Assembly: GCA_001275005.1 (NCBI GenBank)
Contig: JWZX01001868.1
Span: forward strand, 1-34,874
DNA length: 34,874 nt
Direction of reading: 5' to 3'
Source of the DNA: Chrysochromulina tobinii
Taxonomy: Eukaryota > Haptophyta > Prymnesiales > Chrysochromulinaceae
In this document: piece after piece, positions 5,713 through 25,900 of the stretch
Layout of the letters: each line of letters starts with the position of its first letter
How positions within the stretch are numbered: the first letter of the stretch is position 1
Notes under the pieces: model-generated
Told to the model about the DNA's origin: nothing
What the model saw: only the letters and a program-made list of their open reading frames with translations
Databases searched by the model: none
Translations under genes and position numbers: made by a program

Positions 5713-8700
5713 CTAATGGCCCGAATTGACCCACTGGTCCGCCGCCTGGCTGGCCACCTTGGTCGCGCCCTCCGCCGCCTGCAGCAGCGAGCCGACGAAG
5801 ACCTCGAGGCTTCGGACGGCGGGTGGCGGACCCCCGGGCGGCGGCGTATAAGGAAACAAGGAAGGTGATCATCCCCGACGTTATCCCCGACGAGCACGGG
5901 CCACGAGCCAGTCAGCCTCTCGCGGGGCGTGCTGTTCAGTGGCCTTGAAGGCCCCTCGAGAGGCCACCTCCGCGCTCGTGTCGCATGCCTTCGACGAGCA
6001 CCACTTCCTAACATGGGAGGTGTCGCATGCCTTCCACGAGCACCACGGCTCAATTGCCGGGGCACTCAGCGCATTGACGAGACCGAGAAAGGGCAGCCGC
6101 GCCCGCCAGAGTTCGCGTCGCTCACCTAAGTGAAAGGCACATCAGGGAGGTCATCAGGGAGGTCATCAGGGAGGCCATCAGGGAGGTCATCAGGGAGGTC
6201 ATAAGCGCCGCTCACCTAGGTGAAAGGCGACGAGCTCGGCCGCGGCGAAGTTGCGGTCGTACGCTTGCTCTTGCTTGGGCGCCGCGCCAAAGTAGGCCAC
6301 GTCATCGACCACCATGAGCCCTTTGGTGAACCACTTGCCTCCGGCTGCACACGCGGGCGGACGAGGTTGAATCACGCGGGCGGACGAGGTTGAATCACGC
6401 GGGCGGACGAGGTTGAATCACGCGGGCGGACGAGGTTGAATCAGAGGCAATTAGAGGCAATCAGAGGCAATCAGAGACAATTAGAGGCAATCAGAGGCAA
6501 TTTGAGGCAATCAGAGGCGATTAGAGGCGATCTTGGATGTCAGCAGAGACGTCATCACGTCATCAGGGAGGTCATCAGGGAGGTCATCAGGGAGGTCATC
6601 AGAGACGTCATCAGAGACGTCATCACGGAGGTCATCCGGGTGGTCCTCAGGAATCTCACCGGTCCAGAGCGTCGACGAGGTGCCGTTGGGCGCGAGCAGC
6701 CCGAGACCTCCGATCTGCGAGAGGAGATAGAGCACCTGTGGGGAAGGGGCGCCGTGGTGAGCATGCGCATGCAGCCCGAGGCCGCCGAACTGCGAGAGAG
6801 GAGATCAGAGCACCTGCCCACGATAGAAGAGAGGAGATAGAAGAGAGGAGATCGGAGGAGATCGGAGGAGATCAGAGGAGATCAGAGGAGATCAGAGGAG
6901 ATCAGAGCACCTGCCCACGATAGAAGAGAGGGTTGTGGCAATTGGGTCCTCCGAGTCGCACGCTGCGCCGCGGCTTGCCCGTGCGCCGGTCGACCAGACG
7001 AAGCATGGAGGTTGCGGCGAGATTGTTGTGCAGGCACCAGAGCAGGCGCGGCGTGGCGAGCACGTTGTTCGCGTGCGCGTGTGCGCGGCCGATCGCGGAC
7101 ATGCCCAGCGCGGTGGACACGCTGCGCTTGATCACCAGCCGTACAAATGGACCGCCACCCTCCATCCCGGGGTCCTCTAATCCCAACCATCCACCTTCCT
7201 TATTTGGACCACCTCTCTCAAATCGCAACGGTCGCACGCCGCCGTCGGCGCGCCATACGGTAAAGTTGGCCTCCGGAATCTGACGAATCTTCTTCGAAGA
7301 CCATTCCTTATTCGGACCAGCTTCCTTATTTGGACCAGCCTCCTCATTTGGATCTCCCTTGATTGCCCTTGATGACGACAGTATCTCGATGTCGAGCTCG
7401 AGCACACGCGCGGTAGCGGAGTCGACTACAAGGGGCGCCCATCGTGGTTATCAGTGGTAATCAGTGGTGATCAGTGGTGATCAGTGGTAATCAGTGGCAA
7501 TCAGTGGTAATCAGTGGCAAATCAGTGACCACACCAGAGGTCATCAGGGGCCATCAGAGTTCATTCACGCCTCTCATTCACACCTACAAGGAGCGTCCCC
7601 TCGTCGGAGAGGATTGAGTCATGAAGGTAGCCAGTGGGCAGCCCCCACTCGCCCGCCACACGCCTCGAGCCCGGATCGAGAAGCGTGAGGCCATCCATCC
7701 CGACACCGAGGGACGACGCGTTGCGTGCGGCGGGGCGCGAGTACTTCTCCTGGCTGCGGAGGGGGGTGGGGGGATGAGGATGAGATGAGGAGTGCAATCA
7801 GCATTCGGGACGGGAGTGCTTCTCCGCACGAGAAGCAATCAATCGCACTCATAGAGATCATCCGCGTTGAGTGCTTCTGAGATCTGCAATCAATCGCACG
7901 CAAAGAGGTCATCCGAGATGAGAAGCAATCAATCACACTCAGAGAGATCGTCATAGAGACAGGCCATCAGAGAGGTCATCCGCGTTGATCACCTGCCCAC
8001 GAGCAGCCACGGCGCCGTCCTGGGCAGCGGCACCACGCCATAGTAGTGGCCGTAGCCGCGGCTCAGCCGCCGGATGCAGCCCAGTCCCAAATCGAGCTCC
8101 ATGAGCGCCTGTGGGGAAAGGGCGCCGTGGTGAGCACATGGGTCCCAGCTCGAGCTCGAAGCGCGTCGTGGTGAGCACATGGGTGGCGTCGGGAGGATCC
8201 AAGATAACACTCACTAGCAATCACTTTCAATCACTTTCAATCAATCACAATCAGGAGCAATCAGGATCACTCAGGAGCACCTGGTGCGTCGACAGGAGCA
8301 ATCATGAGCAATCAGGAGCAATCAATAGCAACCAGGAGCAATCAGGAGCAATCAAGAGCACCTGGTGCGTCGACAGGAGCAGGCGAAACGCACTCGTGCC
8401 TCTCCCCGCCCACGCAGGCCACTGGTCGAGCGGGGGAGTGACGGAACACGTACGCCACGCGGGCGATGCAAGCGCGTTGGGTCGGGCGTAGATAGGCAAT
8501 TGCATGCCGATCGCGTTGGGTCGGGCGTAGATAGGCGATTGCCTAAAAAGGGACCCATGCCGATCCAAATTCGGATCCAAATGAAGAGGGCTCGCCCGGT
8601 ACGGCGCCGTGGGTGCGCCCGGTACGGCGCCGCCGATCCCGAGCCAACGAGAGAGGAAGTCTGGTATAGCTGGCATAGCGGCAGCCAGATGAGGCAGCCC

Positions 8701-10687
8701 GACGAGACAGCCCACGGCGACCTTGTTGCAGCTCTCGGGCATCGCGGCCGCTTGGCGCAGCCCGACGAGCCAGCCCACGGTGCGCACGAGACCAAATATG
8801 AAAGGTCCACTGCGCGAAGTGACGCTCGGGACGGCGCTCGAGTCGGCGCAAGTGCGACGGCGTGCTGTGAAGGCGAGCTGTGAAGGCGTCGGCGGCGGCG
8901 AGGGCGGCAGAGAAGGCGGCGGAGGGTGAGCGCCACCTCGCGCCGTCCCGAGCGCCCCCCGGCTGGCCTCGTGGTAGGCGACGGCCGCGACGATCATCGC
9001 GCCGACGACGCTCACGGCGACCAGCACCGTGTGCACGGACGAGAACATGTAGATGAACGTGTCGGCAGCGATACCGGGCAGGCTCTCGAACCGCTCAGTA
9101 CGGCGCGCGAGGGCCTCGATCGCGCTGCGGTTGTACACTGTGGGGAAGGGGCGGCCGAGGCTGAAGTCGGGCACTAAGCCGGGGTACCGACGGCGCACGC
9201 GGGTGGTGTCGTGCCTGTGGGGGTGGGGGCGCCGTAATGAGCAATTGTATGCACGGCGGCTGGCGGAAGGGGAGGCCTTGCAGTGAGGGGGAAGCCTTAC
9301 AGGGAGGCGCCGTGGTGGCAAGAAAGAAGATGAGGGGGGCACTCAGCATGAACACTCCGCGCACCCAAATGGTGAGTCCTCGACCGCAGCTCGCAATCAA
9401 CACGCAATCAACACGCAATCAACGCAATCAACGCAATCAGCGCGCACCCAAATGGTGAGTCCTCGACCGCAGCTCGCAATCAACACGCAATCAACATGCA
9501 ATCAGCGCAATCAACGCAATCAGCGCGCACCCAAATGGAGAGGCCTCGACCGCAGCTCGCAATCAACACGCAATCAACACGCAATCAACGCAATCAGCGC
9601 GCACCCAAATGGCGAGTCCTCAACCGCAGCTCGATGGACTGGCCGTTGCTGAAGCACCTGTGGGGAAGAGGGCGCCGTGCTGAGCACCCGCAGGCAGGCA
9701 GGCAGCTCGATGGACGGGCCGTTGGCGGCGCCGTGCGGAGCACCTTGAAGCCGATCGCGAGGCGCCACTGGTCGGGTTGCAACGCGTGGCTGTCGGTCCT
9801 GTGGATCTCCACCTGTGGGGAAGCGAGGACGCCGTGGTGAGCGTTTGCATGCAAAGGTCGGGTTGCAACGCGTGGCTGTCGGTCCTGTGGATCTCCACCT
9901 GTGGGGAAGCGAGGACGCCGTGGTGAGCGCTTGCATGCAAAGGTCGGGTCGCAACGCGTGGCTGTCGGTCCTGTGGATCTCCACCTGCGAGATCGCGGTC
10001 ATCAGCGCCCATCAGCGCCCATCAGAGGCCATCAGGGGCTATCAGGGGTCATCAGAGGTCATCAGAGGTCATCAGCGGCAATCCGATACCATCTGTGGCC
10101 ATCAGAGGCCATCAGTCGCAATCAGTGGCAATCAGTGGCCATCAGTGGCCATCAGTGGCAATCAGAGGCAATCAGTCTCTCCACCTGCTTGAGTACGAGC
10201 GCATCCCCCGACTGCAACGGCACCTGTGGGGAAGCGATAGGGAAGCGAGGGCGCCGTGGTGAGCACTTGCATGCGTCTGAGCGCATCCCCCGACTGCAAC
10301 GGCACCTTGATCGCCCGTGGCGTGTGAACGCCTCTCAAGGTGGCGCGTGCGCGGGGGGGGACCCATCCCAAGATGCCCTTGGCAGAGAGACGCACAGCCT
10401 GCAATCAAGGACGCACTCGGAGTGCATGCAATGAGGGACGCAATCAGCGGCACTCAGTGGCACGCAGAGGCACACAGAGGCACTCCGAGGCCATCGAGAG
10501 GAGCGGATGCGCCGTCTCGAGCACTCGGGGGCACTCAAGGGCTATCAGAGGCCATCGAAGGCCATCGAAGGCCATCGAGAGGAGCGGGTGCGCCGTCTCG
10601 AGCACCTCTTCCGGCGAGTGAAGCGGCTGCGTGCTCGAAAAGTTGGCGCCCGCTGCGCCGAAACGAGCCGCGTAGCACGCGTCGTAC
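5713..10687 (-). CDS. Many-exon gene: single-pass membrane protein with beta-propeller (5' end unresolved)
   Basis: Exons were joined by AG acceptors, GT donors and matching phases, in transcript order: 10606-10687, 10306-10398, 10185-10223, 9744-9812, 9605-9657, 8937-9214, an unresolved part in 8543-8936 (an acceptor at 8809 fits), 8362-8542, 8179-8213, 7993-8108, 7584-7753, 6911-7425, 6660-6735, 6216-6344, 6047-6125, and 5713-5809 ending in TAG. Phase agrees at every junction except across the unresolved part. Exon 8937-9214 encodes a hydrophobic membrane span (HTVLVAVSVVGAMIVAAVAY). Later exons read like propeller blades, for example GMDGLTLLDPGSRRVAGEWG, DEGTLLVVDSATARVLELD and KGLMVVDDVAYFG. 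Exon 6911-7425 carries four copies of a GPNKE-type motif. I do not recognise the family. The first exon, which must leave two bases, was not found, and the last acceptor (5810) lacks a pyrimidine tract. Confidence 0.55.
5810..6046 (-). other. Proposed last intron of the propeller gene
   Basis: The intron starts GTGGTGCTCG after AATTGAGCC and ends at CGAAG. The first 27 or so bases of the intron are repeated about 40 bases further in, around GTGGTGCTCGTCGAAGGC. Phase 2 on both sides gives the joined peptide APAIEPLEVFVGSLL. The acceptor lacks a strong pyrimidine tract, so this junction is the least certain of the gene. Confidence 0.4.
6126..6215 (-). other. 90-bp intron bounded by direct repeats
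   Basis: The end of the preceding exon plus the intron start (6207-6230) and the intron end plus the next exon start (6117-6140) are 24-base copies differing at about two positions. Each contains TAG|GTGAGCG, so donor and acceptor are equivalent positions of one duplication. Between them are about six copies of the 12-mer GATGACCTCCCT (sense strand), each with a CTGAT at its edge. Confidence 0.65.
6345..6659 (-). other. 315-bp intron built from three kinds of tandem repeat
   Basis: Sense order: GTGAGATTCC donor, an array of 12-mer units related to GATGACCTCCCT (about 6545-6650), an array of 10-mer units TGATTGCCTC (about 6440-6535), and four exact 23-bp units at 6352-6374, 6375-6397, 6398-6420 and 6421-6443. 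It ends GTGTGCAG. Flanking exons join as TLWT|AGGKWF with matching phase. Confidence 0.65.
6736..6910 (-). other. 175-bp intron with shared 3' module and degraded exon copy
   Basis: The exon end and donor around 6906-6930 (CTATCGTGGGCAG|GTGCTC) recur around 6808-6830. After the second copy, sense bases 6815 down to about 6775 are a diverged copy of the first roughly 45 bases of the next exon (6735 down to 6694). The intron then finishes with the shared module at 6736-6774: GCATGC, TGCTCACCACGGCGCC, CTTCCCCACAG. A GGAGATCAGA (plus strand) 10-mer array fills 6838-6907. Confidence 0.7.
7426..7583 (-). other. 158-bp minisatellite intron
   Basis: The preceding exon ends CTCCTTGTAG and the intron itself ends CCCCTTGTAG, so the donor-side exon end matches the acceptor. 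The interior is an array of about eight 10-mer units, ACCACTGATT or ACCACTGATC in sense, each showing CTGAT. Phase 1 joins as GTLLV|VDSATARV. Confidence 0.7.
7754..7992 (-). other. 239-bp intron with CTGAT/TGATTGCTTCTC repeats
   Basis: Donor GGGCAG|GTGATC and acceptor CCCCTCCGCAG flank a loose array around 7800-7985 in which TGATTGCTTCTC and GATGACCTCT blocks alternate. Phase 2 (AG|C) joins WLLVG to SQEKYSRP. Confidence 0.65.
8109..8178 (-). other. 70-bp introner-like intron
   Basis: The proposed donor is ACCCAT|GTGCTC and the end is the shared module at 8109-8140 (TGCTCACCACGGCGCCC then TTTCCCCACAG). The block CCCATGTGCTCACCACG occurs twice, at the start and near the end, so most of this intron is two copies of the module. 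A diverged copy of the next exon (GAGCTCGA..TGGGAC) lies between. The junction gives DPPDATH|ALMELDLG, which reads naturally. Confidence 0.55.
8214..8361 (-). other. 148-bp minisatellite intron
   Basis: The donor block TCGACGCACCAG|GTGCTC occurs twice, at the true exon end (8362) and again about 81 bases into the intron (8281). The interior is an array of TGATTGCTCC units. The acceptor is the weak GCTAG at 8214-8218. Confidence 0.5.
9215..9604 (-). other. 390-bp intron with fourfold amplified exon end
   Basis: The end of exon 9605-9657 together with its donor (GAGGACTCGCCATTTGG|GTGC) is repeated inside the intron. The GTGC ends fall at 9601, 9527, 9444 and 9361, a spacing of 74, 83 and 83 bases, and TTGATTGCG units separate the copies. 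The intron ends with a diverged shared module (TTGCTCATTACGGCGCCC then CCCCCACAG). Its interior reads MLSAPLIFFLATTAPP, which imitates a signal peptide. Confidence 0.6.
9658..9743 (-). other. 86-bp introner-like intron
   Basis: It starts AAG|GTGCTCC and ends in the shared module (GTGCTCAGCACGGCGCCC then TCTTCCCCACAG). The first roughly 42 bases are an expanded copy of the next exon's start; both contain CAACGGCC[C/A]GTCCATCG followed by AGCTGC. Flanking exons are both in phase 0. Confidence 0.7.
9813..10184 (-). other. 372-bp intron with 86-bp exon-start/module unit in series
   Basis: The start of exon 9744-9812 (GTGGAGATCCACAGGACC and about 25 more bases) is present three times, with acceptor edges at 9812, 9898 and 9984, exactly 86 bases apart. 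The two intronic copies are each followed by the shared module, TTTGCATGCAA[A/G]CG, CTCACCACGGCGTCC, TCGCTTCCCCACAG. Upstream is an array of about 20 CTGATGGCCA/CTGATTGCCT 10-mers. Any of the three acceptors would keep AG|GTGGAG. Confidence 0.7.
10224..10305 (-). other. 82-bp introner-like intron with perfect 27-bp direct repeat
   Basis: The first 27 sense bases of the intron (10305-10279) are identical to the first 27 of the next exon (10223-10197). The rest is the shared module: GCATGCAAG, TGCTCACCACGGCGCCC, two CGCTTCCC units, CACAG. Both exons are phase 0, joining PRAIK to VPLQSGDALVLKQ. Confidence 0.8.
10399..10605 (-). other. 207-bp intron with duplicated donor segment
   Basis: The sense block GTGCTCGAGACGGCGCACCC plus CTCCTCTCGATGGCC at the donor recurs about 77 bases downstream with one difference. 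10-mer units of the GATGGCCTTC and TGAGTGCCTC type follow. The acceptor is TTGATTGCAG|GCTGTG, and phase 0 joins HSPEE to AVRLSAKG. Confidence 0.6.
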
Positions 10688-10941
10688 CTGTGAATAATCA
10701 AAGGTCATCAGAGGTCATCAGAGGTCATCAGTGGCAATCAGAGGTCATCAGCGTCGTGCCCATGTTCTCCAAGGCACTCCTTGGTCATCAGTGGTCATCA
10801 GTGGTCATCAGTGGTCATCAGTGGTCATCAGTGGTCATCAGTGGTCATCAGAGGCAATCAGAGGCAATCAGAGGCAATCAGAGGCAATCAGAGGCAATCA
10901 GAGGCAATCAGAGGCAATCAGAGGCAATCAGAACTCCTCAC
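10688..10941 (-). other. Repeat-filled region between the DDX1 exons and the propeller gene
   Basis: On the sense strand this holds about eight TGATTGCCTC units, then seven TGATGACCAC units, then a unique island at about 10746-10785, then more TGATGACCTC units. The unique island contains the small inverted repeat CCAAGG..CCTTGG and an ATG. A small exon could sit there, but no AG/GT pair convinced me. A 3' end of DDX1 or a first exon of the next gene must lie here or be missing. Confidence 0.5.
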
Positions 10942-12503
10942 CTGTCCGCCGACCGGCGGCAGCTTCGCATGCAATTTGAGGATCGTGTCGAGATGTCCCG
11001 TGTCGAGCAGCCGGTCAGCTTCGTCGAGCACGAGGAACTGCGAGGGCGAGAGAGAGGGGGAGGAGTGAGTCGAGAGAGAAGAAAACGATCGCAGTCAGAA
11101 GCACTCAGACACTAGAGACGCAAACAGAGGCGCAATCAGAGGCAATCCGAGGCGCAATCAGAGGCAATCCGAGGCGCAATCAGAGGCAATCCGAGGCGCA
11201 ATCAGAGGCAATCCGAGGCGCAATACGAGGCGCAATCAGGAGAGATCGCACCTGGACCCCCGAGAGCACGAGCTTGCCCGAGCTCACCAAATCCCACACG
11301 CGCCCGGGCGTGCCACATACAATGTCGACGCCTGCGCGCAACCGCTTGAGCTGCGGACCTGGATCCACGCCACCTGAGAGGCAATCAGCGGCAATCGGCG
11401 GCAATCGGCGGCAATCAGCGGCAATCAGTGGTAATTCGTGGCGCAATCAGCTCCACCCCACCGGTAAGGAGGGCAGCCTCGAGGCGCGGCTCGGCGAAGT
11501 AACGGCTGAATTGGGCCACGCACTCGTGCACCTGCTCGCACAACTCCCTTGCGGGCTCAAGGATCAGGGCAGTCGGTATGCGCCCCTCGCCATCAGCACC
11601 GCCGCCACCGCCGCCGCCGCCGCCGCTACCGGCAGCGGCAGCGGCGTCCCTGCTGCTAGAGGTGGCGGCCGAGTTGGTGGCCGCGTGTTCGGGAGCGATC
11701 GCGTCGAGAGCATGCGCGCCGCCGGGGAGGCAGTTTCCATAAAAGGGTCGAGCGCCCAAGTTGATGCGCACCGCGGCGCCCTTGAGGCAAATCGCGGGGA
11801 AGAGCGCCGTGCCCTTGAGCGTCGGCGGCACCGAGAACGCTTCTCCGAGGCTCACGCCGTTCTTGTAGAAGGCCATCGAGCCGATCTCGCGATCGAGCTC
11901 GCAGCCGATCACGTCGCCGCGCGCGTACGAGTCTCCGTAGTCGACGAACTGGTTGCCGTTGGACTTCTTGCCGGTCCCCCCAAAACCGAAGCCCATCTTG
12001 TCGGTGCCGAGCGCGAGCTTGGCCGAGAGGGTGGCCCATCCGACACGGCAGAGCCCATCGCCCAGCTGCTCCACCTCGTAGTAGTAACGGCCGCCCGTCA
12101 CGCCCACGCCCGCCCGCCCGCCCGCCCACGCCTGCGCGGCCCCACACGAGCACTCGAGCCCTTGCGCGCTCACCTGAAGCAGACCGTCGCGATCGCTGCC
12201 GAAACCTATGCCACCCGCGGCCTGCGCGCGTGCGGCCGCCGCCGCGAGCGCAGCGATCTTTGGCTGCGATGAGGCGGCTGCCTGCTCGCGCAGTGCCTCG
12301 TGGCAGATCTGGAGAACGGGCAGTGCAAAGGCCCCCGTCTTGCCGCTGCCCGTCTCGGCGGCAGCCATGACGTCGCCGCCGCCGAGGATTAAGGGGATCG
12401 CCTCCTGCTGCACGGGCGTGGGGAGGAGCCAGCCGAGGTCTTCGACTGCGCGCACAATCGGCGCGTCGAGGCCAAGCTCGGCAAAGGCTGCCATGTGCGG
12501 CAA
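10942..12503 (-). CDS. DDX1: DEAD-box RNA helicase DDX1, first RecA half with SPRY insert
   Basis: Three exons, 11462-12503, 11252-11373 and 10942-11037, join in phase to 420 residues. Motif I is TGSGKT at 51-56, after a Q-motif region ([12 protein letters not shown]). A SPRY domain (about 105-265, [25 protein letters not shown]) is inserted between motifs I and Ia, an arrangement diagnostic for DDX1. Motif Ia ([10 protein letters not shown]), TPGR and the Walker B motif DEAD ([11 protein letters not shown]) follow. DDX1 acts in tRNA splicing-ligase activation and RNA repair and transport. The second RecA domain (motifs IV-VI) is not found in this window; after 10942 the strand continues with exons that do not resemble it. 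Either the 3' exons are lost or displaced, or this is a truncated copy. Confidence 0.8.
11038..11251 (-). other. DDX1 intron 2, minisatellite-filled
   Basis: Donor CCAG|GTGCGATC, acceptor CCCTCGCAG|TTCC. An array of about five 22-bp double units, TGATTGCGCC then TCGGATTGCCTC in sense, lies at 11108-11240. Unlike most introns here, its first bases do not copy the next exon. Confidence 0.75.
11374..11461 (-). other. DDX1 intron 1 (88 bp)
   Basis: It begins GTGGGGTGGA and the next exon begins GTGGCGTGGA, again a short near-copy of the exon start. The interior is TGATTGCCGC units ending CTCTCAG. Phase 1 joins LLTG to [11 protein letters not shown], which agrees with the DDX1 family. Confidence 0.8.
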
Positions 12504-12610
12504 AGACTCCGAAGAATTTTGCTGCGTGCCTGCGTGAACGCAGCTGTGAACAATTTTTCCAAAAACTTTCCAGGTTTAGGACACAGCTGAATCTCTAAGG
12601 ACGCGTCGCC
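12504..12610. promoter_or_regulatory. Divergent promoter region, DDX1 / AARSD1
   Basis: Only 107 bp separate the start codons of DDX1 (-) and the AARSD1-type gene (+). Both genes handle tRNA-related RNA metabolism, so co-regulation is plausible but inferred. I see no clear TATA box; an AT-richer patch lies at about 12550-12572. Confidence 0.4.
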
Positions 12611-17084: not shown

Positions 17085-18179
17085 CTATGCCTTCTTGGTT
17101 TTGCTGACGTGTGTCTGGTAGTCCGGCGTCAGATGTGCGGTGAGAGCTGTCAGAAGGGCCATCGTGTTGTACCCAAGGAGCTGGATCACGAGCCGCAGCC
17201 CCACGCTCACACCGCCCAAGTCCGCGACGATTGCTCCGCGTCCAATGTGGCTGAGGAACTTTTGGGGAAGCACCTCCGGCCCAGAGGCGAACTTGTAAAA
17301 GGCGGCCATGGCCTCGATCTTGCGCTGCTGGACCTGGTTGCCTCCGCCGGCGGTGAAGCGGCTGTTGACAGGCGAGGGGTGGATAGAGTGCACGTGGATT
17401 CCACGCGGCCTCGCTTCGCAAGCGAGGCTGGCGGCAAAGGCCGAGACGCCCGACTTGGTGGCGCCGTACATGACGGCGAATGGGTTGGGGATATACGATG
17501 CGGAGGAGGAGGTAAAGACGATGCAGCCGCGGAGCTGTTTGGCGAGCATGCGCTCGTAGAAAAAGTGGCTCAGCCAGATGTTCGACGTCAGGTTGCAGTG
17601 CAGATTTGCGAGGTGCGCGCCAACGGCATTCTGCTCAAACATGCCAGTAAGGATGTAGCCAGCATTGAGGAAGACGCACTGGACATCGTTGTCGCCGACC
17701 GCGGCCTTGACGCCCTCCATCCACACGCCAGTCCCGTCCGAAAGATTCGCATTCACACGAACTACCTTGCGTGACGGGAACTGCTGCGACAGCTCCGCGA
17801 CGGTGTCGCCGAAGAGGGGCTCGTCGCGGGCAACGAGGATCACGTCGAGCTCCTGCTTGAGCAAGGTGCGCGCAAGCTCCTTGCCGATGCCACTGGACGA
17901 ACCGGTCACAAGCGCCCACTTGGCGCCGTACTTTTTCTTCAGATTTTGGCTGGGGAGCAGCATTGGAATCACGCTGTTCAGCACAAAGTACGCAACCGGC
18001 GCGAAGCCCAACACGCAGAGCCAGAAGGTGGAGGACGTAAGGAGACAGACTAACTGGTCGAGCGTACTCAGGAGTATCGGCTGCACCACAGCCCACGCGT
18101 CGATGGCTGACAAAAAGGCGGAGGCCAACGTATCGGGCGGCGGCGACGGTGGTGGTGGCGGCGGCGCCCTGAAAAACAT
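17085..18179 (-). CDS. ER-anchored short-chain dehydrogenase/reductase (HSD17B12-like)
   Basis: A 364-residue protein from ATG at 18179. After a Pro-rich start and two hydrophobic stretches (about 28-48 and 52-75) comes a classical Rossmann SDR domain: TGSSSGIG at 92-99 for cofactor binding, NAG at 172-174, and a catalytic Ser near 225 with YGATK giving Y238 and K242. The C-terminus KTKKA fits the KxKxx ER-retrieval signal. The N-terminal anchor and ER signal suggest a 3-ketoacyl-CoA or steroid-type reductase of the HSD17B12 group, probably in fatty-acid elongation; substrate is inferred. A PPPPPP run at residues 6-11 comes from a GGC-repeat microsatellite at about 18135-18170. Confidence 0.75.
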   Translation of the reverse strand: MFFRAPPPPPPSPPPDTLASAFLSAIDAWAVVQPILLSTLDQLVCLLTSSTFWLCVLGFAPVAYFVLNSVIPMLLPSQNLKKKYGAKWALVTGSSSGIGKELARTLLKQELDVILVARDEPLFGDTVAELSQQFPSRKVVRVNANLSDGTGVWMEGVKAAVGDNDVQCVFLNAGYILTGMFEQNAVGAHLANLHCNLTSNIWLSHFFYERMLAKQLRGCIVFTSSSASYIPNPFAVMYGATKSGVSAFAASLACEARPRGIHVHSIHPSPVNSRFTAGGGNQVQQRKIEAMAAFYKFASGPEVLPQKFLSHIGRGAIVADLGGVSVGLRLVIQLLGYNTMALLTALTAHLTPDYQTHVSKTKKA

Positions 18180-18310
18180 TGGGCAAAAATTACGTGTGCT
18201 GTTTCAGATCGCAATCTCGAAACGTCGATAGGATGTCGAGCCACACAATGTGGGGAAAACTAGTAGAAGGGCCAAGCTGACCTGTGCGACGCGTCGCAAA
18301 ACTCACGGTC

Positions 18311-19888
18311 TCAGCCGCCCGCCTTCGCCGCCCTGGCGACTTCGCGTTGTACAAAGTCGGTCACGCACCGCGCCGCCTCGAGCTGCTCGTTCTCAGCGCG
18401 GCTCGCGCTTTCGCGCAGCGTGCGCGCCACGTCCGCGACTCCCAGGCGCGCGGCCACCTCCCAATCGAAGCCGTCCAAGTACGCAGCGACTGAAGGCGCA
18501 TTCGGTGTCACGTGCGTCCCGTCGAGGCGCTTGAAGTCGAGACGGCCGCCGAGCCCCGTCGCCTTGTCAGTGAAGCGCGCCTACAGATGCAGCCGGGATC
18601 AGGGGGAGTGAGGGAGGGCAGCGTGCAATGAGGGAGGCCACTCAGCATTCGTCGCCTTGCCCACGGAAGCGCACCTGCAACCGTTTCGCGAGGGCGCTCG
18701 ACTGATCGATCTCGTCATTGACGAAGCGCACGAGGAGATTGCGCCCGACGGCGTAGCTCGATGAGACGAGATGATCCATTTCCGCAGGGCCAGGCGTGAA
18801 CTCGGGGACGCTGGTGGCCGTGCTCGCGCCCGCGCCCGCGCCCGCACCAGTGTCGGCACCGCCGCCGCCGCCAGGGCCACCGACGCCCCCGCCGGCCGCA
18901 CCCGCGGCGGCGCCTGCCGAGCGCCGTGCACGCACGCTCGCGTCAGCGGCGCCTCGGCTAAAGGCATCGAGCTGCGACGCTGTCGTGTCGAGAGCCCGGC
19001 GCACAGCCTCCACGGTCGAGGTGGACGCCGCCCGAGAGCGCTGTGCCGAGCGCTCCTCGAGCGACTCGCTCAGCCCTTGCAGTGTGCTCGCCACTCCCCT
19101 GCCAAGCATCGCTCCAAGCTCACCTGTGGGCAAAATGGCGCCGTGGTGAGCACATGCATGCAAGGCAATAGCGCTCCAAGCTCACCCGCGCTCCCTAGTG
19201 CACTGCCCGCCCCTTGAGCGACCGTCGTGCCGAGCACGTCTGCCAGCCGCCCGCCCTGCGCGGCGTCACTCAGGCGCACGGCCTGCTCGAGCAGCGGGAT
19301 CGACTCCGCCGCGGCGAAGTTGTTGTACGCGATCAAGACGTTCGCCGCCCGCGGGCCGAGCACCTCGATCATCTTGGCGTCCGACCCCAGTAGCACAAGC
19401 AACTTGGCTCCGAGCGAGTGGCCGAGCCCGACCGTTGGGAGCGTGTCTGTGGACGGATCGCCGCGCACAAAGAGCGCCGCGTCGAGCTCGCGCTTCGCGG
19501 CGCACCATCGAAGCAGCACCTCACTCGCAGCCCCCCAGTGGTCGAGGCCGGTCAGGCCCTGCACGGGCGTGGCCACGATGCCCAGGCCCGTGCCGACGGC
19601 GACGGCCTCGAGGAAGGGACTGTAGGCTTGGCGTGGCGCGGCGCCCACGAGTGCGCCACCCACAAAGTGCACCAAGCCGGTGCAGGGCGTGCCTTCCTCA
19701 GGCAGCAGCACGTCGCACTCACCGATCCGCTGCCAGCGGTTGACCGCACGCGGACGACCGTTGTCAGCGCCCGAGGCCTGCCCACCACGGCCCCAATCAT
19801 CCGATGCGTACGCGCCCGAAGCGGTGCATTGCGGTGGCCGCGCACGCACGATGGCGGCGAACGTGGCGACGGCCGCTAAGAAACCCAT
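18311..19888 (-). CDS. DUF1350-type alpha/beta hydrolase, probably plastid-associated
   Basis: Exons 19186-19888, 18675-19123 and 18311-18580 join in phase to 473 residues, ending TGA at 18311-18313. The first true ATG is at 19888 and gives a signal-like start (MGFLAAVATFAAIVRA), which in secondary-plastid algae may begin a bipartite targeting sequence. Residues 70-185 match DUF1350: GLVHFVGGALVGAAP, then IVATP, GLDHWGAASEVL, and the nucleophile elbow GHSLG at 156-160, followed by NVLIAYNNFAAAESIPLL. The family is known from cyanobacteria and plastid-bearing organisms; its substrate is unknown to me. The C-terminal half has a Gly/Ala-rich linker and a helical region (DGFDWEVAARLGVADVARTL). 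Both introns are bounded by direct repeats. Confidence 0.75.
18581..18674 (-). other. DUF1350 intron 2 (94 bp)
   Basis: Donor TTGCAG|GTGCGCTTCC, acceptor ATCTGTAG|GCGCGCTTCA. The first 26 intron bases and first 26 exon bases are diverged copies that both end CAAGGCGACG. The interior has CTGAGTGGCC and CTCATTGCA units. Phase 0 joins ALAKRLQ to ARFTDKATGL. Confidence 0.75.
19124..19185 (-). other. DUF1350 intron 1 (62 bp), introner-like
   Basis: The shortest member of the family. The 15 bases at 19172-19186 and 19110-19124 are identical, each containing G|GTGAGCTTGGAGCG in sense. The remainder is the shared module: TTGCATGCATG, TGCTCACCACGGCGCC, ATTTTGCCCACAG. Phase 1 joins GSAG to ELGAMLGRG. 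Confidence 0.85.
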
Positions 19889-20603
19889 GTTCCTGTTCAA
19901 CACAACGCCGAGGACTCAGAGGCGCTCCCTCCGGAGGATGGTAAAAAGACACCGGGGGAGCCGGGACACACACGGGACACACGGACCCTACCGGTAGCAC
20001 AGGAAGCCACAATCACTATGGACGGAGGAGTGGCCTACACAGCCCGTGGTAACACTTCCGTATTAACACAGGCCGTTACATGTGTAGTCGGCAGCGTGGG
20101 GGAAGAGGAGGCGCCGGGCAGCGCCGGGCCCCCTTTCCTGCTACGCGTCGCACCGGCGGCGTTTTTGTGGAAATGAGAAAGCGAGCTTGCCTGCACATGG
20201 TGGGAGCTCGCTTGCCTTCTCGGGATCTGCAGCGGGACGATCCACCGTTGGTGAGATGCCAGATGGGTACGTATAACGTGAGTTCGTGGTACGACTCAGA
20301 CGCGCTGAGCATTGCCGCTGAGGGCGCGCGAAGAAACTATGACGAAACATGTTTCGTCCCAGTCAACACGAGTTCGCGTAGGGCCCGGTTCAAAAACTTT
20401 ACCGAAAAACACCTTAGGCAGCCGGGAGACGGGACACAGTGACACGAGTCACGACACACGTGGTCACCGGACAGGACAGTGACAGACACACAATTAAACA
20501 CAAAGAAGGAGAATTTCACAACCATGCAAACCGACTAAAACCGACTTCACCCCCGGTACTTCCGGTTCGGGTGTCCGCGCGGTCCCGAGCTGTTCCCAAG
20601 TTC
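19889..20603. other. Intergenic region upstream of the DUF1350 gene
   Basis: About 700 bp between the start of the DUF1350 gene and the stop of the Kelch gene, both on the minus strand. It contains the 31-bp element at 19954-19984 described separately. The block at 20410-20490 is rich in GACAC/GTGAC repeats. No gene is supported. Confidence 0.5.
19954..19984 (-). promoter_or_regulatory. 31-bp upstream element shared with LRRC45
   Basis: On the minus strand this reads CCGTGTGTCCCGTGTGTGTC then CCGGCTCCCCC, followed within a few bases by GTCTTTTT and preceded by TACCGGTA. The same 31 bases occur at 22734-22764 on the plus strand. In both places the element lies upstream of a start codon and in that gene's sense direction. 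Function is inferred from position only. Confidence 0.45.
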
Positions 20604-22316
20604 TCACATGGATACGGCACAACCGGATCTCGTCACTACGCCAAGCGCCATGCTGGTCATTGCCGCCCACTCGTTCGTCGCCGGATCGTACCGCTCAACG
20701 GAGCTGAGCCGGTTTTGGCCGTCATGGCCGCCCATCACATACAGCTTGCCGTCGATTGCCGCCGCCGGACTGGTCCGTGCCGTGGGCATCGGTGCGACTG
20801 CCTCCCAGGCATTCGTCGCCGGATCGAACCGCTCGACGGAGCTGAGGTAACCATTAGGACCATAGCCACCCATCACATACAGCTTGCCATCGATTGCCGC
20901 CGCCGCCGAAGCGGCTCGTGCCGTGGACATCGGTGCGACTGCCTCCCAGGCATTCGTCGCCGGATCGAACCGCTCAACGGAGCTGAGCCGGTTTTCGAGC
21001 CGGTTTTGGCCGTCCAGGCCCCCCATCACATACAGCTTGCCATCGATTGCCGCCGCCGCCGGCATGACTCGTGCTGTGGACATCGGTGCGACTGCCTCCC
21101 AGGCATTCGTCGCCCGATCATACCGCTCGACGGAGCTGAGCTGGTTTTGGCCGTCATGGCCGCCCATCACATACAGCTTGCCGTCGATTGCCGCCGCCAC
21201 CGGACCGGTCCGTACTGTGGACACCGGTGCGACTGCCTCCCAGGCATTCTTCGCCGGATCGAACCGCTCGACGGAGCTGAGCCTAACTCCATTAGGACCA
21301 TAGCCACCCATCACATACAGCTTGCCGTCGATTGCCGCTGCCGCCGGACAGCTTCGTAACGTGGACGCCGACGCCAGTGCCTCCCAGGCGTTCGCCATGG
21401 AATCGTACCTGCAAAGGTAAAGGGTGGCCAACGCATCGCTCGCAAGCCCGCCCACAATGTAGAGCTTCTCAAAGCCCATACGACGACGCGCCGAGTCGCC
21501 GTGCAGTGCGCCAAAAAAGGTCCGGCTCAGCATCTGCATGCCAGCAACGGTCAAGAGGAGCGGCTCGTTGTGCACCGTCTCTTGGACAAACTCGCGCCTC
21601 AGCAGCGGGAAGCGCACCAGCCGAAGCAGTGCCAGCGCGTCGTCCTCGGCGGGTGGAGGCGCCTGGGCGTGCAGCCACGTGACCGCTGCCGAGTACACAG
21701 CCTCTTCACCAGCCACCTTGAGCCGGTCGGAGGCGAGCAGCGCACGCACGGTCTCTGCCGGCGTGCTCAGCCACGCGGGCGTCGCTGCGATCTGCTCAAA
21801 GTGGCGAGTCGCTGCCGACACCGCGTGAGCCGCGAGCTGGCTCAGACCCTGCCGGTCGGCGACGGCCCAGTAGGCGAGGGCTGTGGTCGCGCTCAGGTGT
21901 ACACTCATTGCCTTGGCCGCGGCGTCCACAAGGTGTGGAATCTGCAGATAGGCCGCCGCCTCAAGCACGACCATCAGCTCTGCCGCATCGGCGACTGTGC
22001 AGCTCCCCGTGTAGATGAACTCGAGGCATGCGGCGAGCCCTTGCTTCGGGACCACGGGCAGCGACAGCGGCCGGCCGGCTGTGTCCGCCCACCGCTCACC
22101 GGCTAGCAGGCGCTCAAAGTACTCCGAACCCGAGGTGATGCACAGGGCGTGAGCGTGGAAGGCGGTGCCGTCCGCCGCCACCACCTCGACGTCGGTGAGG
22201 CGGCCATCGCGAAATTTGGCGATGGTGCTAGGCTTCTCGGCGAGGCCGCCCACGAGCTCGATCGATGCGGCGGAGGGTGCGTCGGCGGAAGCGCGGGCGC
22301 GCTTTCGGGGCGGCAT
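20604..22316 (-). CDS. BTB-BACK-Kelch protein (Cullin-3 adaptor type)
   Basis: A 570-residue protein from ATG at 22316. The BTB domain (about 40-145: RLTDVEVVAADGTAFHAHAL, SEYFERLLAG, FIYTGS) is followed by BACK (about 150-265) and six Kelch blades (about 290-565) with the core AAIDGKLYVMGG and NAWEAVAPMSTAR. Such proteins recruit substrates to Cullin-3 ubiquitin ligases. The blades are almost identical at the DNA level, so they expanded or were homogenised recently. One blade has an extra NRLENR duplication from a 15-bp repeat near 20985-21010, and the last blade has lost one alanine codon. Divergent from LRRC45. Confidence 0.85.
   Translation of the reverse strand: MPPRKRARASADAPSAASIELVGGLAEKPSTIAKFRDGRLTDVEVVAADGTAFHAHALCITSGSEYFERLLAGERWADTAGRPLSLPVVPKQGLAACLEFIYTGSCTVADAAELMVVLEAAAYLQIPHLVDAAAKAMSVHLSATTALAYWAVADRQGLSQLAAHAVSAATRHFEQIAATPAWLSTPAETVRALLASDRLKVAGEEAVYSAAVTWLHAQAPPPAEDDALALLRLVRFPLLRREFVQETVHNEPLLLTVAGMQMLSRTFFGALHGDSARRRMGFEKLYIVGGLASDALATLYLCRYDSMANAWEALASASTLRSCPAAAAIDGKLYVMGGYGPNGVRLSSVERFDPAKNAWEAVAPVSTVRTGPVAAAIDGKLYVMGGHDGQNQLSSVERYDRATNAWEAVAPMSTARVMPAAAAIDGKLYVMGGLDGQNRLENRLSSVERFDPATNAWEAVAPMSTARAASAAAAIDGKLYVMGGYGPNGYLSSVERFDPATNAWEAVAPMPTARTSPAAAIDGKLYVMGGHDGQNRLSSVERYDPATNEWAAMTSMALGVVTRSGCAVSM
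20640..21420 (-). repeat. Tandem near-identical Kelch-blade coding repeats
   Basis: Six direct repeats of about 145 bp share long runs such as CATCACATACAGCTTGCC and GTGCGACTGCCTCCCAGGC on the plus strand. The repetition is within coding sequence. Confidence 0.85.
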
Positions 22317-22698
22317 AAAAAGGAGACCTGGTGACGAGCAAACATCTCGTCTTCCCACAGCCCCGCGGAAGCAGAAGTGCTGAAACCGAACTTACGCGTC
22401 AAGTAACGCGTCAAGACGAACAAGTCGTCAGTCTCGTCACTTCTCTTAATTCTCTTAACACTTCTCGACTTCTCGTCACCTCCTCACAAGTGAGTTACCT
22501 CACATTCTTCTAATAACACCCGGATCTCATCAATCTTCTGTGAACGCGGGCACTGGATGTGGGCATGTCGCGTGTCGGCTGGCAGCGCCGGCGGCGGCGG
22601 CCCATGTCAGATCGGTGTGCGACATGTACATGTAGAACAAGTGAACAACCGACAAGTTTTATCAAAACGACAACACAACAGTACATGTACCGGTACAG

Positions 22699-22724
22699 TA
22701 CATGTACCGGTACCGGTACATGTA
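22699..22724. repeat. Perfect 26-bp palindrome of TACATGTACCGG units
   Basis: The sequence TACATGTACCGGT then ACCGGTACATGTA reads the same on both strands. Partial copies of the same unit flank it at 22681-22696 and 22719-22730. It could form a hairpin or bind a dimeric factor. Confidence 0.8.
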
Positions 22725-22733
22725 CCGGTAAGC

Positions 22734-22764
22734 CCGTGTGTCCCGTGTGTGTCCCGGCTCCCCC
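22734..22764 (+). promoter_or_regulatory. 31-bp upstream element shared with the DUF1350 gene
   Basis: Identical to the reverse complement of 19954-19984. It lies 138 bp before the LRRC45 start codon in sense orientation and is followed by GTCTTTTTT. Confidence 0.45.
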
Positions 22765-22784
22765 AGGAGTCTTTTTTGGCGTTT

Positions 22785-22828
22785 ACTTGACTTGACTTGA
22801 CTTTGGCGTTTGACTGACTTGACTTGAC
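22785..22828 (+). repeat. (ACTTG)n pentamer repeat upstream of LRRC45
   Basis: About three plus two pentamers, split by TTTGGCGTTTGAC, end 75 bp before the start codon. The same sense-strand pentamer precedes two other genes in the window. Confidence 0.6.
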
Positions 22829-22902
22829 CACCCGCTCGCCTCACGAGCGCATTCCTACCCGTCGCGAGCGTGTGCTAATCCGTGTGCTGCTGCTCCCCTG
22901 TT

Positions 22903-25900
22903 ATGACGGCTGAACCCTCGCCCGATGCATTCGTATTGCCACCCGTGCCCTCTCCAACGCTCTCCTTCTCGGACCGCTGCCTTGGCGACCACGGCGTGCG
23001 CGCTCTGGTTGCCGCACTCTCGGTCCGCCGAGACGTCACCTCGATCGACCTGCGCGGCTGCCATGTGCATGCGGCCGGTGCGCTTGCGCTCGCCGAACTG
23101 CTGCTTGGCCCTGGAGGCAGCCGCATCGGCTCGCTCTCGCTCGAGTGGAACGCGCTCGGCACCTCGGATGCGGGCCCGCGGGCGATCGCCCGTGCTCTCG
23201 CGGCCAACTGTGCCCTCACCGCCCTCGATCTGCGCAACAATCGTATGGGCTCATCGGGGGTCGCATCCCTCGCGGAGGCTCTCGCGTACAACAGCACGCT
23301 CATCACCTTCGACTTGCGCTGGAATTCGGCCGGCGTGAGCGGCGGCTTGGCGCTCGAGTCGGCGCTCGCGCAGAACAGGACGCTGCTGCGGTTGCTGCTG
23401 CAGGGCAACCGCGTGCCCGACGACCTGCTCAAGCGCATCGAGCGGCTGCTCGGACGCAACGGCGCCGCCTCGAGCCTTGTCGCCGGCGCCTCAGCGCCCT
23501 ACTCCGAGGACTCCTCGGACAGGTGGCCTGCGATCATATCCTCCCACGCCCTGCCGGGGGAGAGGCTTCTCGTCGCACCGGCGGCGAGGGTGGGCGCGCT
23601 GTCCGACCGCGCGTGCTCCGCCATTGCGAGCACGGCCGACGTGGCCGTGGACGCCTCTCAGTCGTCGCTGTCGCCGCCGCACGGGCTGCTCCGTGCCGCG
23701 TCAGTGCCACCTGTGCCGCCGTCCACAAGCACGCAAGTGCACCTCCACTTGCATGCAGAGGCCAAGGAGAACGAGGCTGGCCAGCTCATCGCTCTACCAC
23801 CGGTATCGGCCGCTGCCGGTCTCGCACTCTTGCCCCCCGCCGGCGGCACAGCAGCGGCCGCGGAGGGTGCCTCAGCGGCGTCACGCTCGCTCAGTGCGTC
23901 GCTGGCGACGGCCGGCGGTTACGTGGCCGACTCGAGGTCCTCGCTGCCACCCGGCGGCTACGTGGCAGACCCGAGGTCCTCGCTGCCGCCTCCGCCAGGC
24001 TACTCCGCCGACGACCCGTGTGCTTCGGTGCCGTATGCGGCGGAGCCGAGTGCCTGCCTGCCGCCCGGCTACGCCGCCTACTCGATGCCCTACGCGGCGG
24101 ATGCGAGCACGTCCCTGCCGCCCGGCTACGCGCCGCCGTCCTCGCAGATGGGCTCGGTACCGGCGTCGATGCCCACGTCGTGGATGGCGTCGCCAGCCCC
24201 CACGCCGCTGCGCGCAGCGGTGCGCACGCGCACGCTCGAGAACGCCCTGGTGCTGCAGCACGCCGAATTCAGTAACAAGCTGAAGCACGCCTTCGAGCGC
24301 GCGGACGCTGCCGAGGAGATCTTGACCTCGGAGCGATCTCGCGCCGACCAGCAGCGTGAGAAGGCCCTTGTGGCGGCGACTGAGGAGGCGGAGGCACGTA
24401 AGAAGCTCGCGCTGCTGCAGCGCGAGCTCACGGAGGCGCGTAAGAAGGCGGACGAGGAGGTGGCGCGCGTACTCAAGGAGGGGTCGACCCGGGAGCAGCG
24501 CACTGCTCTCGCCGAGGCCGCGCGTGATCACCTCGAGCGCGAGCTGCAGGCGCGAGATGCGCGCCTCGAGTGCACATGATCGCATCTGATGGCCCCTGAT
24601 AGCCTCTGAGTGCCTCGATTGGCCTTTGCATGCAGGCGCGAGATGCGCGCCTCGAGATGGAGCTCAAGGCGATCGCCGATCGCGAGCAGCGGGCGGCGAT
24701 GGCTGAAGCACGCGCGGCCGAGTCCGCGTCGCAGCTGAGCGCGCTCAACGAGCGGCTACTCAACGAGCGGCGCGCGCACGCCACCACGCTCACGGAGCTT
24801 CAGGACCGTCTGAGCGACGCGAACCCGACTGCACCACGGCTCGGCATGCACGTGCTCACCACGGCGCCCTCCTCTCCCCACAGGACCGTCTGAGTGACGC
24901 GGAGGCGGTACGCACCTCCGCGGAGCTCCGCCTCGCCTCCGCCGAGGCGGCGCGTGCTGCGGCGGTCACGGAGGCTCTCTCGAGGCAGTCGCGCCGTCAT
25001 GAGCAGGCGCTCGAGCAGGTGCGCGTGCATGCATGCTGATGGTCCCCTCTCCCCGGTTGCATGCATGCTCCCCACCCTTCCCTCCGCGCAGGTGCGCGTG
25101 TCCGTCGAGCGCGTGCCTGCATGCTGATTGCCCTCCCCATTTGCAGGCTGACTACCCCCGCCCTCCCGAGCAGGTGAAAGAGTCCGTCGAGCGCGCCGAG
25201 GCCGACGCGGCGCGCGCGGCCGAGCAGATCTCCAAGCACCGAGATGAGCTCGAGACGGCGCGAGCCCTCGCGGAGACGAAACAACGGTCGCTCGAGAGCC
25301 AAGCTGTGGAGCGCGAGGCGGCGCTGGAGAAGAGCTACGAGGCGCGCCTCGAGGCGGTGGAGAAGGAGAAGGCGTCGCTGCGCGAGTCGCACCACGCGAC
25401 GCTCAGCCAGATGCGCGAGGCCGAGGAGGTACGCCGGCAACAGCACGACGTGAAGCTCGATACGGCGCGCAAGGCGCATGCAACGCTGGAGCGGCGCTGC
25501 TACGAGCGCGAGGCGCATGCGGAGAGTCTGGAGCGGGAGCTCGCACGCGTGCAGTCCGAGTTGGCGGAGGCGGGGCACGCGGAAGGCGCCCTCAAGGAAG
25601 CCCTCGAACGACAGCGCGAGGCGGCCGCGGAGCAGAGCGCCGCCGCGGCCGCGGAGCTCGCGACGACGCGTCGCCACTGGGAGGAGCGACTGGCGACGGC
25701 CACCGCGGACAACCGCGCGCTCGCGCGCCAGCTGCTCGACACACAGCGCGAGCTCGCCCTCGCCAATGGCCGTTGGGAGGCGTCGGTGCAGACGCTGCAG
25801 CACTCCGTGCTCCAGTGCTTCCAGCATTCAATCGAGTCGACGCGCGGGGGAGGGTCGCCACCACTGATGGCTGGAGAGCTGGGCGACGAGGACGAGGAGG

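What the first reader, a model, noticed from the sequence alone, without database searches (positions are those of the whole stretch)
6736..24883. A dispersed introner-like family shares one 3' intron module across three genes and both strands
Eight introns end with the same block, nine copies in all: minus strand at 6736-6774, 8109-8140, 9215-9253, 9658-9690, 9813-9855, 9899-9941, 10224-10275 and 19124-19163, and plus strand at 24844-24883. The block is a GCATGC-like palindrome, then TGCTCACCACGGCGCC, then a short variable part and CTTCCCCACAG. It is always in the sense of the host gene. CTCAC fits a YTNAY branch point about 20-30 bases before the acceptor. Unrelated introns should not share this much sequence, so the module was probably copied between genes, as with introners known from some algae.
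Basis: partly seen in the sequence, partly recalled or inferred. Interest (0 to 1): 0.92.

Follow-up and report, generated by a model that had tools for sequence, protein, structure and literature searches.

The report
Introns built from duplicated exon pieces
This alga's genome holds thousands of copies of a very short DNA module, and in the copies studied the module seems to make new introns by landing in a gene and duplicating some 15 to 45 letters of the exon beside it, which offers an unusually readable record of how new introns are born.

Summary
All nine blocks are present; the 16-base core has 4,140 places genome-wide at up to 2 mismatches against 161 for the reversed pattern. Intron = [GT + about 15-45 bp copied from the downstream exon] + [GCATGCAAG-TGCTCACCACGGCGC-C, pyrimidines, CACAG], then the original exon. 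The duplicate supplies the 5' splice site, the module the branch-point-like CTCAC and the 3' splice site. A few copies show the mirror form, with the upstream exon duplicated. A second module family (1,420 places) includes units built the same way. Excision at these borders restores the reading frame far more often than retention (20 against 3 of 29). One such intron lies inside a JmjC domain; among near-identical proteins some read into it and some lack it. Some copies lie in long open frames in both orientations, so the module is not strictly intronic. 'Introner-like' is supported; 'one 3' module copied between genes' is only part of it. Direct repeats I found in print are 3-12 bp at introners or new introns, 4-30 bp in a general survey. 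New variant of introners; insertion machinery unidentified; no RNA evidence.

The parts
6736..6813 (-). Core-family intron, 78 nt; donor GT at 6813 in a diverged copy of the exon start (about 40 bp, by eye), module, acceptor CAG at 6736; follows 6814-6910 head to tail
   Evidence: (34-column repeat)
6814..6910 (-). Unit without the core, 97 nt: CTGATCTCC-type repeats between two exact 38-bp copies that contain GGGCAG|GTGCTCTG
8109..8140 (-). Core module and acceptor; donor not settled; only weak gapped similarity between flanks, by eye
9215..9253 (-). Diverged core module (2 mismatches) with acceptor; no flanking duplication found
9658..9743 (-). Core-family intron, 86 nt; GTGCTCCGCACGG... copy upstream, GTGCTTCAGCAACGG... 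exon downstream
   Evidence: borders read from the sequence
9813..9898 (-). Core-family intron, 86 nt, 43-bp exact duplication; part of an 86-bp tandem array
9899..9984 (-). Core-family intron, 86 nt; head-to-tail repeat of the previous one
10224..10305 (-). Core-family intron, 82 nt; first 27 bp of the duplication exact (the script's 38 bp at 89% overruns its end)
19124..19185 (-). Core-family intron, 62 nt; 15-bp exact duplication GGTGAGCTTGGAGCG
24804..24883 (+). Core-family intron, 80 nt, GA-AG borders; duplication CAGGACCGTCTGAG[C/T]GACGCG
24550..24635 (+). Intron-like unit without the core, 86 nt, GC-AG borders inside an exact 26-bp duplication TGCAG|GCGCGAGATGCGCGCCTCGAG
   Evidence: borders read from the sequence
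25092..25173 (+). Intron-like unit without the core, 82 nt, GT-AG within a 30-bp imperfect duplication

Best explanation
These are introners of an unusual build. A very short module (core GCATGCAAGTGCTCACCACGGCGC, about 24 bp, usually with a 3' tail of pyrimidines and CACAG, sometimes with a 5' head GTACGTTGATTGCCACTGATGACC) is inserted at a staggered break whose overhang is about 15-45 nt. Filling in both ends leaves a long direct duplication of the target. If the duplicated piece starts with GT after an AG-like exon end, the upstream copy gives the 5' splice site and the module gives branch point and 3' splice site (type I). If it ends in AG and the insert carries GT, the downstream copy gives the 3' splice site (type II). 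If it contains AG|GT, it gives both. Splicing then removes exactly one copy plus the module and restores the old mRNA, so the insertion is nearly neutral and accumulates. Insertions that cannot be spliced survive only if in frame or outside genes. Shown here: anatomy, duplications, their alignment with the splice borders, frame restoration on excision, and copies in both orientations inside a long open frame. Inferred: that splicing takes place, that the break is staggered, what makes it (a transposon endonuclease or break repair), and the selection step.
For: Duplication: 101 of 150 core copies score 13 or more against 20 of 413 flank-swapped pairs; anchored test 68 of 103 above the 99th percentile of 1,948 swapped pairs, starting exactly at exon base 1 in 54 of 68. 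Thirty-two clean cases outside arrays: duplication 15-46 bp, median 25, mean identity 0.955, 8 perfect; introns 63-89 nt; GT at the start of the exon copy in 27, GC 3, GA 2; exon -1 is G in 27. Held-out loci: 9 of 14 core copies. Frame, codon model trained without the locus tested, L019 left out: 28 of 38 phase-consistent if excised, 11 of 38 if retained; of 29 whose length is not a multiple of 3, 20 against 3; where both flanks look coding, 15 of 15 consistent and 15 of 15 sense; sense 32 of 38 overall (with L019 29 of 39, 21 against 3 of 30, 16 of 16). Acceptors: 75 of 100 YYYYACAG|G sites of the core-selected sample carry the core at up to 8 mismatches (74 at up to 5), none the reversed core. 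Gene level: an introner inside a JmjC domain (Pfam 4.3e-16 across the junction); P0124 and P0123 read into it, P0121, P0122 and P0126 lack it. Second family: 707+713 places against 0; perfect duplications of 30-37 bp in L028, L018 and L013.
Against: No RNA evidence. 48 of 151 core hits at up to 2 mismatches have no acceptor, 49 of 150 show no duplication at the threshold. The sample was chosen around exact core hits, and arrays make some copies non-independent. A scan of direct repeats without the core for GT-AG at matching offsets showed no clear excess over control dinucleotides (48 of 130 against 58, 33 and 12), so the second family rests on individual cases. Insert ends are not constant, unlike a normal transposon, and no enzyme was tied to the module: 26 reverse-transcriptase matches, none of the 8 fetched loci with either module. 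The JmjC contrast rests on proteins only; the intron-less ones could be spliced transcripts of other alleles, and loss by recombination between the repeats is possible.
Confidence: 0.72

Rival explanations
1. Tandem duplication of an existing intron-exon boundary (as in the potato RdRp gene): an intron end plus exon start is duplicated, and the new intron uses a cryptic donor in the upstream exonic copy. The module spreads only locally.
For: Arrays such as window 9813-9984, L022 8637/8710, L025 4917/5002 and L014 6033-6252 have exactly this form. The potato case is described in the abstract of PMC4974935.
Against: Singletons in unrelated genes share the same core, while the sequence upstream of copy 1 is plain exon without a module. 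The JmjC site has an intron-less state in near-identical proteins. Copies antisense to a long open frame cannot come from an intron boundary of that gene.
Confidence: 0.15
2. A retrotransposition-like (target-primed) insertion of intron RNA or of a very short SINE-like transcript, with 5' truncation and variable target duplications.
For: Variable 5' ends of type I inserts against a nearly constant CACAG end; variable duplication length; reverse-transcriptase genes present.
Against: Type II inserts and core-only inserts lack the 3' end; no poly-A seen in the listed inserts; no module in the 8 fetched reverse-transcriptase loci of about 3 kb each.
Confidence: 0.2
3. A non-autonomous DNA transposon (MITE-like) introner as in most published families.
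For: Family size, both orientations in one open frame, and general precedent in PMC9860276 (passages and section 7).
Against: Target duplications of 15-46 bp instead of 3-9 bp, no terminal inverted repeats seen by eye, ends not constant.
Confidence: 0.15
4. A conserved splicing signal (branch point to acceptor) that arose independently in many introns, without mobility.
For: The core sits at the right distance from the acceptor, and GCTCA is among its best conserved parts.
Against: The identity includes GCATGC and GGCGCC, which no splicing factor known to me needs; copies lie outside introns and in antisense; the exon duplication is unexplained; the U2 snRNA has an ordinary GTAGTA box.
Confidence: 0.02

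Closest known systems
Introners of Gozashti et al. 2022 (PMC9860276; passages and section 7 read), including a Chrysochromulina sp. family
   Same: Dispersed families in many genes; the element carries one splice site and co-opts the other from the duplicated target; types I and II both have counterparts there (legend of their Fig. 2, B and C).
   Different: They state 3-9 bp duplications for some earlier families and 4 bp for the Chrysochromulina example; here 15-46 bp. The insert here can be as short as about 24 bp and its ends vary. Their supplementary tables were not available to me.
Daphnia neo-introns by staggered double-strand-break repair (PMC4202315; passages read)
   Different: Repeats there 4-12 bp; no shared module in the passages I read.
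[quoted passage not shown] abstract read)
   Same: New intron made of a formerly exonic donor segment plus an existing intron 3' end.
   Different: Single local event; here the 3' end comes from a dispersed family.
Small tandem duplications by Pol alpha-primase fill-in of 3' overhangs (PMC8355091; abstract read)
   Same: A repair route that turns complementary overhangs into tandem duplications.
   Different: No inserted module in the abstract; a study of break repair in cells, not of introns.
Amoebophrya introner elements (PMC7789003; passages read)
   Same: Repeated introns with direct repeats at the borders.
   Different: Direct repeats 3-5 nt, inverted repeats of 8-20 nt at the intron ends, non-canonical borders.

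Membership tests
Introners | Many near-identical intron sequences at unrelated positions in one genome | tested here: met
   496 exact core+tail places against 0 control; 32 clean cases from 15 loci with different exons
Introners | Copies are spliced introns in sense orientation | tested here: inconclusive
   Frame test 20 against 3 of 29, and 15 of 15 sense where both flanks look coding; no RNA reads; some copies outside introns or antisense
Introners | Recent gain at formerly intron-less sites | tested here: inconclusive
   One site: 3 near-identical proteins without the intron, 2 proteins plus our genome with it; 11 of the 19 relatives found were aligned. Direction of change not proven, only proteins seen. 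A second gene gave no contrast
DNA-transposon (MITE-type) introners | Short target-site duplication (3-9 bp) | tested here: not met
   15-46 bp, median 25, n=32
DNA-transposon (MITE-type) introners | Terminal inverted repeats | tested here: inconclusive
   None seen by eye in the inserts (both core ends hold 6-bp palindromes, but the two differ); no dedicated test was run
Tandem-duplication introns (AGGT model) | Exonic AG|GT segment duplicated and used for both splice sites | tested here: inconclusive
   Individual cases without the core fit (L017 + 123-nt unit, L016 - 100-nt unit), but GT-AG shows no clear overall excess among repeats without the core; core-family introns mostly take only the GT from the duplicate
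LINE/SINE-type insertion | Constant 3' end with poly-A or similar and 5' truncation | tested here: not met
   Type I inserts fit 5' truncation, but type II and core-only inserts lack the 3' end

The most novel reading that the evidence does not exclude
A separate class of intron-making process: not a transposon with fixed ends, but capture of roughly 24-bp intron-derived modules at staggered breaks with 15-45-nt overhangs, so that each event writes a ready-made intron (duplicated AG|GT plus a branch-point cassette) in one step. It is still going on in natural populations, and it also writes in-frame peptide insertions when the module lands where it cannot be spliced.
Probability: 0.4. Interest if true: 0.88.

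Novelty: new variant of a known kind. Interest (0 to 1): 0.75.

Why it matters
How new spliceosomal introns arise is a long-standing question, and the staggered-break and tandem-duplication ideas rest on few cases or short repeats. If the sample holds genome-wide, one compact algal genome carries hundreds of cases in which the duplicated target is long enough to read the insertion site, the overhang length and the relative age. Two splice-site recruitment modes and unspliced copies occur side by side. This makes the mutational step testable apart from selection on splicing.

Tried and rejected
A first duplication test used flanks that still held neighbouring modules, so its control was inflated (53 of 151 above threshold); I replaced it by masked-anchored and ungapped tests. 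A first coding-frame test with two training ORFs gave 39 of 65 phase-consistent against 31.6% at random and 51 of 65 sense; the better version is, repeated without the overlapping locus L019. A first list of 38 clean cases (15-53 bp, median 28) still held six array members or cases whose measured repeat ran into a module or past its end; one search drops them and leaves 32. Scanning direct repeats for GT-AG at matching offsets did not separate introns from tandem repeats overall (core-bearing, not low-complexity: 38 of 76 for GT-AG against 23, 24 and 7 of 76 for control pairs, a fourth control being the reverse complement of one of these; without core: 48 of 130 against 58, 33 and 12; low-complexity without core: 30 of 115 against 70, 13 and 5). 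Arrays and indels interfere; I use that list only for individual cases, and for some of them, such as L028 5290, the coding strand is not known.

Overlapping contigs C101 and C235 (L016/L019) are 99.8% identical over 4.5 kb and share their introners. A search of the own genome with window 9600-11300 found, besides the window itself, only partial matches, mostly repeat arrays and modules, and no second allele; 40 of 1,698 candidates were scored. A search with the family-2 gene of L018 found one protein, P0140, which reads through the same 75-nt unit, so no presence/absence contrast. The negative correlation between duplication length and remaining head (Spearman -0.78, n=32) is partly due to how I set the border between decayed duplicate and insert, and may also reflect a minimum intron length; I draw no mechanism from it. 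L031, an IMG/VR contig whose last 60 bases hold the module, is probably a chimeric contig; one Pfam call on it failed and was not repeated. The second module had no exact match in viral contigs.
Full report
OBSERVATION. The window (34,874 bp, 63.6% G+C) lies in contig C853 of a genome of 53.15 Mb in 2,253 contigs. All nine blocks of the finding are present. At up to 2 mismatches the core TGCTCACCACGGCGCC occurs 13 times in the window; nine have a pyrimidine tract and [CT]AG downstream, and these are the nine reported. Chance does not explain this: one hit at 2 mismatches or fewer in ten first-order Markov shuffles, and none at 3 or fewer for the reversed pattern. Genome-wide counts are 2,039+2,101 against 86+75 reversed, 540+561 against 0 for the 25-mer with GCATGCAAG at up to 1 mismatch, and 234+262 against 0 for core plus CCCCACAG.

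WHAT IT REALLY LOOKS LIKE. The main feature is a long direct duplication. Typical order: exon ...AG | GT[copy] GCATGCAAG TGCTCACCACGGCGCC (Y)n CCCCACAG | GT[the same stretch] ... exon continues. I call this type I. The sample is 222,834 bp: the window plus 20 regions chosen around exact core hits. In it 101 of 150 core copies have such a repeat at score 13 or more, against 20 of 413 flank-swapped controls. Anchored at the acceptor, 68 of 103 exceed the 99th percentile of 1,948 swapped pairs; the repeat begins exactly at the first exon base in 54 of 68, and 80 of 103 downstream exons begin with GT. Of exact cores, 58 of 64 have an acceptor; of those with 2 mismatches only 17 of 49. After dropping arrays, nested cases, overrunning cases and L019 (it overlaps L016), 32 clean cases from 15 loci remain of the 66 introns in the table: duplication 15-46 bp, median 25, mean identity 0.955, 8 of 32 perfect; intron 63-89 nt; exon copy starting GT 27, GC 3, GA 2; exon base -1 G in 27; A of CTCAC to AG 20-39 nt, median 25.5. 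In nine loci not used to find the pattern, 9 of 14 core copies show it; by my reading of that output, 9 of the 10 with an acceptor do, four of these in one locus. In the window 7 of 9 do by one test and 6 of 9 by the stricter one.

OTHER FORMS. Type II is the mirror image: the insert begins with GTACGTTGATTGCCACTGATGACC or a variant, contains the core and ends near GGCGC, and the upstream exon end is duplicated and supplies the acceptor (L012 5894, L027 7597, L023 1499, L027 2919). A second family without the core, with CTGATTGCC/CTGATGACC repeats and the end CTGATTGCCTCCCTCATCAG|GT, has 707+713 places against 0. It shows the same duplications in individual cases, several of them perfect: 34 of 34 bp (L018 578), 37 of 37 (L013 57), 30 of 30 (L028 756). 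In the L017 123-nt and L016 100-nt units the AG|GT lies inside the duplicate, so both splice sites would come from the target. Over all repeats without the core, however, GT-AG at matching offsets is not in clear excess (48 of 130 against 58, 33 and 12 for control dinucleotides), probably because most such repeats are ordinary tandem arrays; the second family therefore rests on single cases.

ARE THEY SPLICED? No RNA was available. Indirect tests agree. With a codon model trained without the locus under test and L019 left out, 28 of 38 usable introns keep phase when excised and 11 of 38 when retained; of 29 whose length is not a multiple of three, 20 against 3 (binomial p 1e-4 against one third); where both flanks score as coding, 15 of 15 keep phase and 15 of 15 are sense; sense overall 32 of 38 (with L019). 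Of 100 YYYYACAG|G sites in the core-selected sample, 75 carry the core at up to 8 mismatches and 74 at up to 5, none the reversed core; G, C, T, C, A of GCTCA are kept in 0.97-1.00. The genome has a U2 snRNA with an ordinary GTAGTA box.

A SITE WITH AND WITHOUT THE INTRON. In L009 (minus strand, 5025) the introner interrupts a JmjC protein. Removing it gives a protein whose JmjC match (4.3e-16) and Cupin_8 match (1.6e-15) span the junction. The protein search found 19 relatives; I aligned 11. P0124 (BLASTP identity 100% over 77% of the query) reads into the intron...LECVQGAGRHGLREVRACKCSPRR.... P0123 (86% over 91%) reads into the same intron. P0121 (99%), P0122 (96%) and P0126 (99% over 59%) run straight through...IECVQGAGDMVFIPAGWHHAV... 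(GPG in P0122). The more distant P0125, P0129, P0131 and P0132 also run through; P0128 ends just behind the site and P0127 departs from the others before it. P0121, P0122 and P0126 then read through downstream modules (GARMQVL...), as our unspliced DNA does, and differ from ours by I for L beside the site. This makes intron-less genomic alleles likelier than spliced transcripts, but if the downstream stretch is exonic the argument weakens, and only proteins were seen. Direction: a duplication flanking the insert points to gain; recombination between the two repeats could also remove it cleanly. A second gene (L018) gave one relative, which has the same unit.

COPIES OUTSIDE INTRONS. On the minus strand of L023 a 1,044-aa open frame holds RRGEHLHA three times, RRGEHVHA once, RRGEHLNA twice and VVSTCMH twice (core antisense to this frame) and HASAHHGA once (core sense), most of them inside direct repeats whose spacing is a multiple of three. 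The opposite strand is open there too, so the coding strand is not proved. Of 19 duplicated core copies without acceptor in the sample, 14 have a repeat unit divisible by three; at least eight of these belong to two arrays and one is a type II unit, so this is weak statistics. I read it as insertion at the DNA level in both orientations, followed by selection: spliceable copies become introns, in-frame ones stay, others are lost from coding sequence.

MECHANISM. Insertion of a short module at a break with a 15-45 nt overhang, fill-in of both ends and joining would produce what is seen. Repair that turns complementary 3' overhangs into tandem duplications is known (PMC8355091, abstract). The source of the break is unknown. 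The genome has at least 26 reverse-transcriptase matches, but neither module occurs in the eight loci fetched. Inserts do not have constant ends: in the clean set 7 to 34 nt lie between the duplicate and the 16-base core, and type II and core-only inserts lack the tail. This fits capture of fragments of existing introns better than a transposon with fixed ends, but a target-primed mechanism cannot be excluded.

ORGANISM. A haptophyte near Chrysochromulina, by inference. The kelch protein of the window is 79% identical to that of C. tobinii, so it is probably not that species. Two plastid rRNA operons carry tRNA-Ala in one spacer and tRNA-Ile in the other, the split arrangement described for C. 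tobin (PMC4226036, passages). The C. tobin genome paper reports 59 Mb, 63.4% GC and on average one intron per gene (PMC4580454, passages).

LITERATURE. An introner survey describes duplications of 3-9 bp in earlier families and 4 bp in a Chrysochromulina sp. family (PMC9860276, passages and section 7). Daphnia neo-introns have 4-12 bp (PMC4202315, passages), Amoebophrya introners 3-5 nt (PMC7789003, passages). A survey of direct repeats near introns gives 4-30 bp, mean 11.4 (PMC11782384, abstract). A potato intron arose by tandem duplication across an intron-exon border (PMC4974935, abstract). I found no report of introners with duplications of 15-45 bp in nine searches of the open-access library, of which I opened only the eight papers named in this report; supplementary tables and subscription papers were not available.

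VERDICT. The introner reading is right in kind but misses the exon duplication that makes these introns work. New variant of introners; mechanism of insertion open.

Noticed in passing
L023 1545-4679 (-) and L009 4302-4410 (-): Core-derived peptides appear inside long open reading frames (RRGEHLHA, HASAHHGA; an 18-bp repeat coding DAHHGA), so the module may also add in-frame peptide repeats.
   Followed up: partly
L031 4495-4554 (IMGVR_UViG_3300027760_000958): A contig from a viral collection ends with an exact 25-base module followed by a pyrimidine-rich CAG|GTGAG; probably a chimeric contig end.
   Followed up: partly
L029 and L030: Two plastid rRNA operons with different spacer tRNAs (Ala against Ile), as described for Chrysochromulina tobin.
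   Followed up: yes
window 10000-10175, 10697-10932, 11114-11239 and others: Other probable introns in the window consist mostly of 10-12 bp tandem repeats (CTGATTGCC/CTGATGACC type) that recur at dozens of places in the genome.
   Followed up: partly
L017 3035 (C124) and L049 1513 (C2002): Two contigs share the same introner at the same target, with nearly the same head but different tail lengths (29 and 12 nt), so the pyrimidine tail seems to change length quickly.
   Followed up: no
P0121, P0122, P0126 against L009 4700-4800: The number and sequence of modules downstream of the JmjC exon differ between near-identical proteins (two in our genome, three in P0126), suggesting array copy-number changes.
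   Followed up: no
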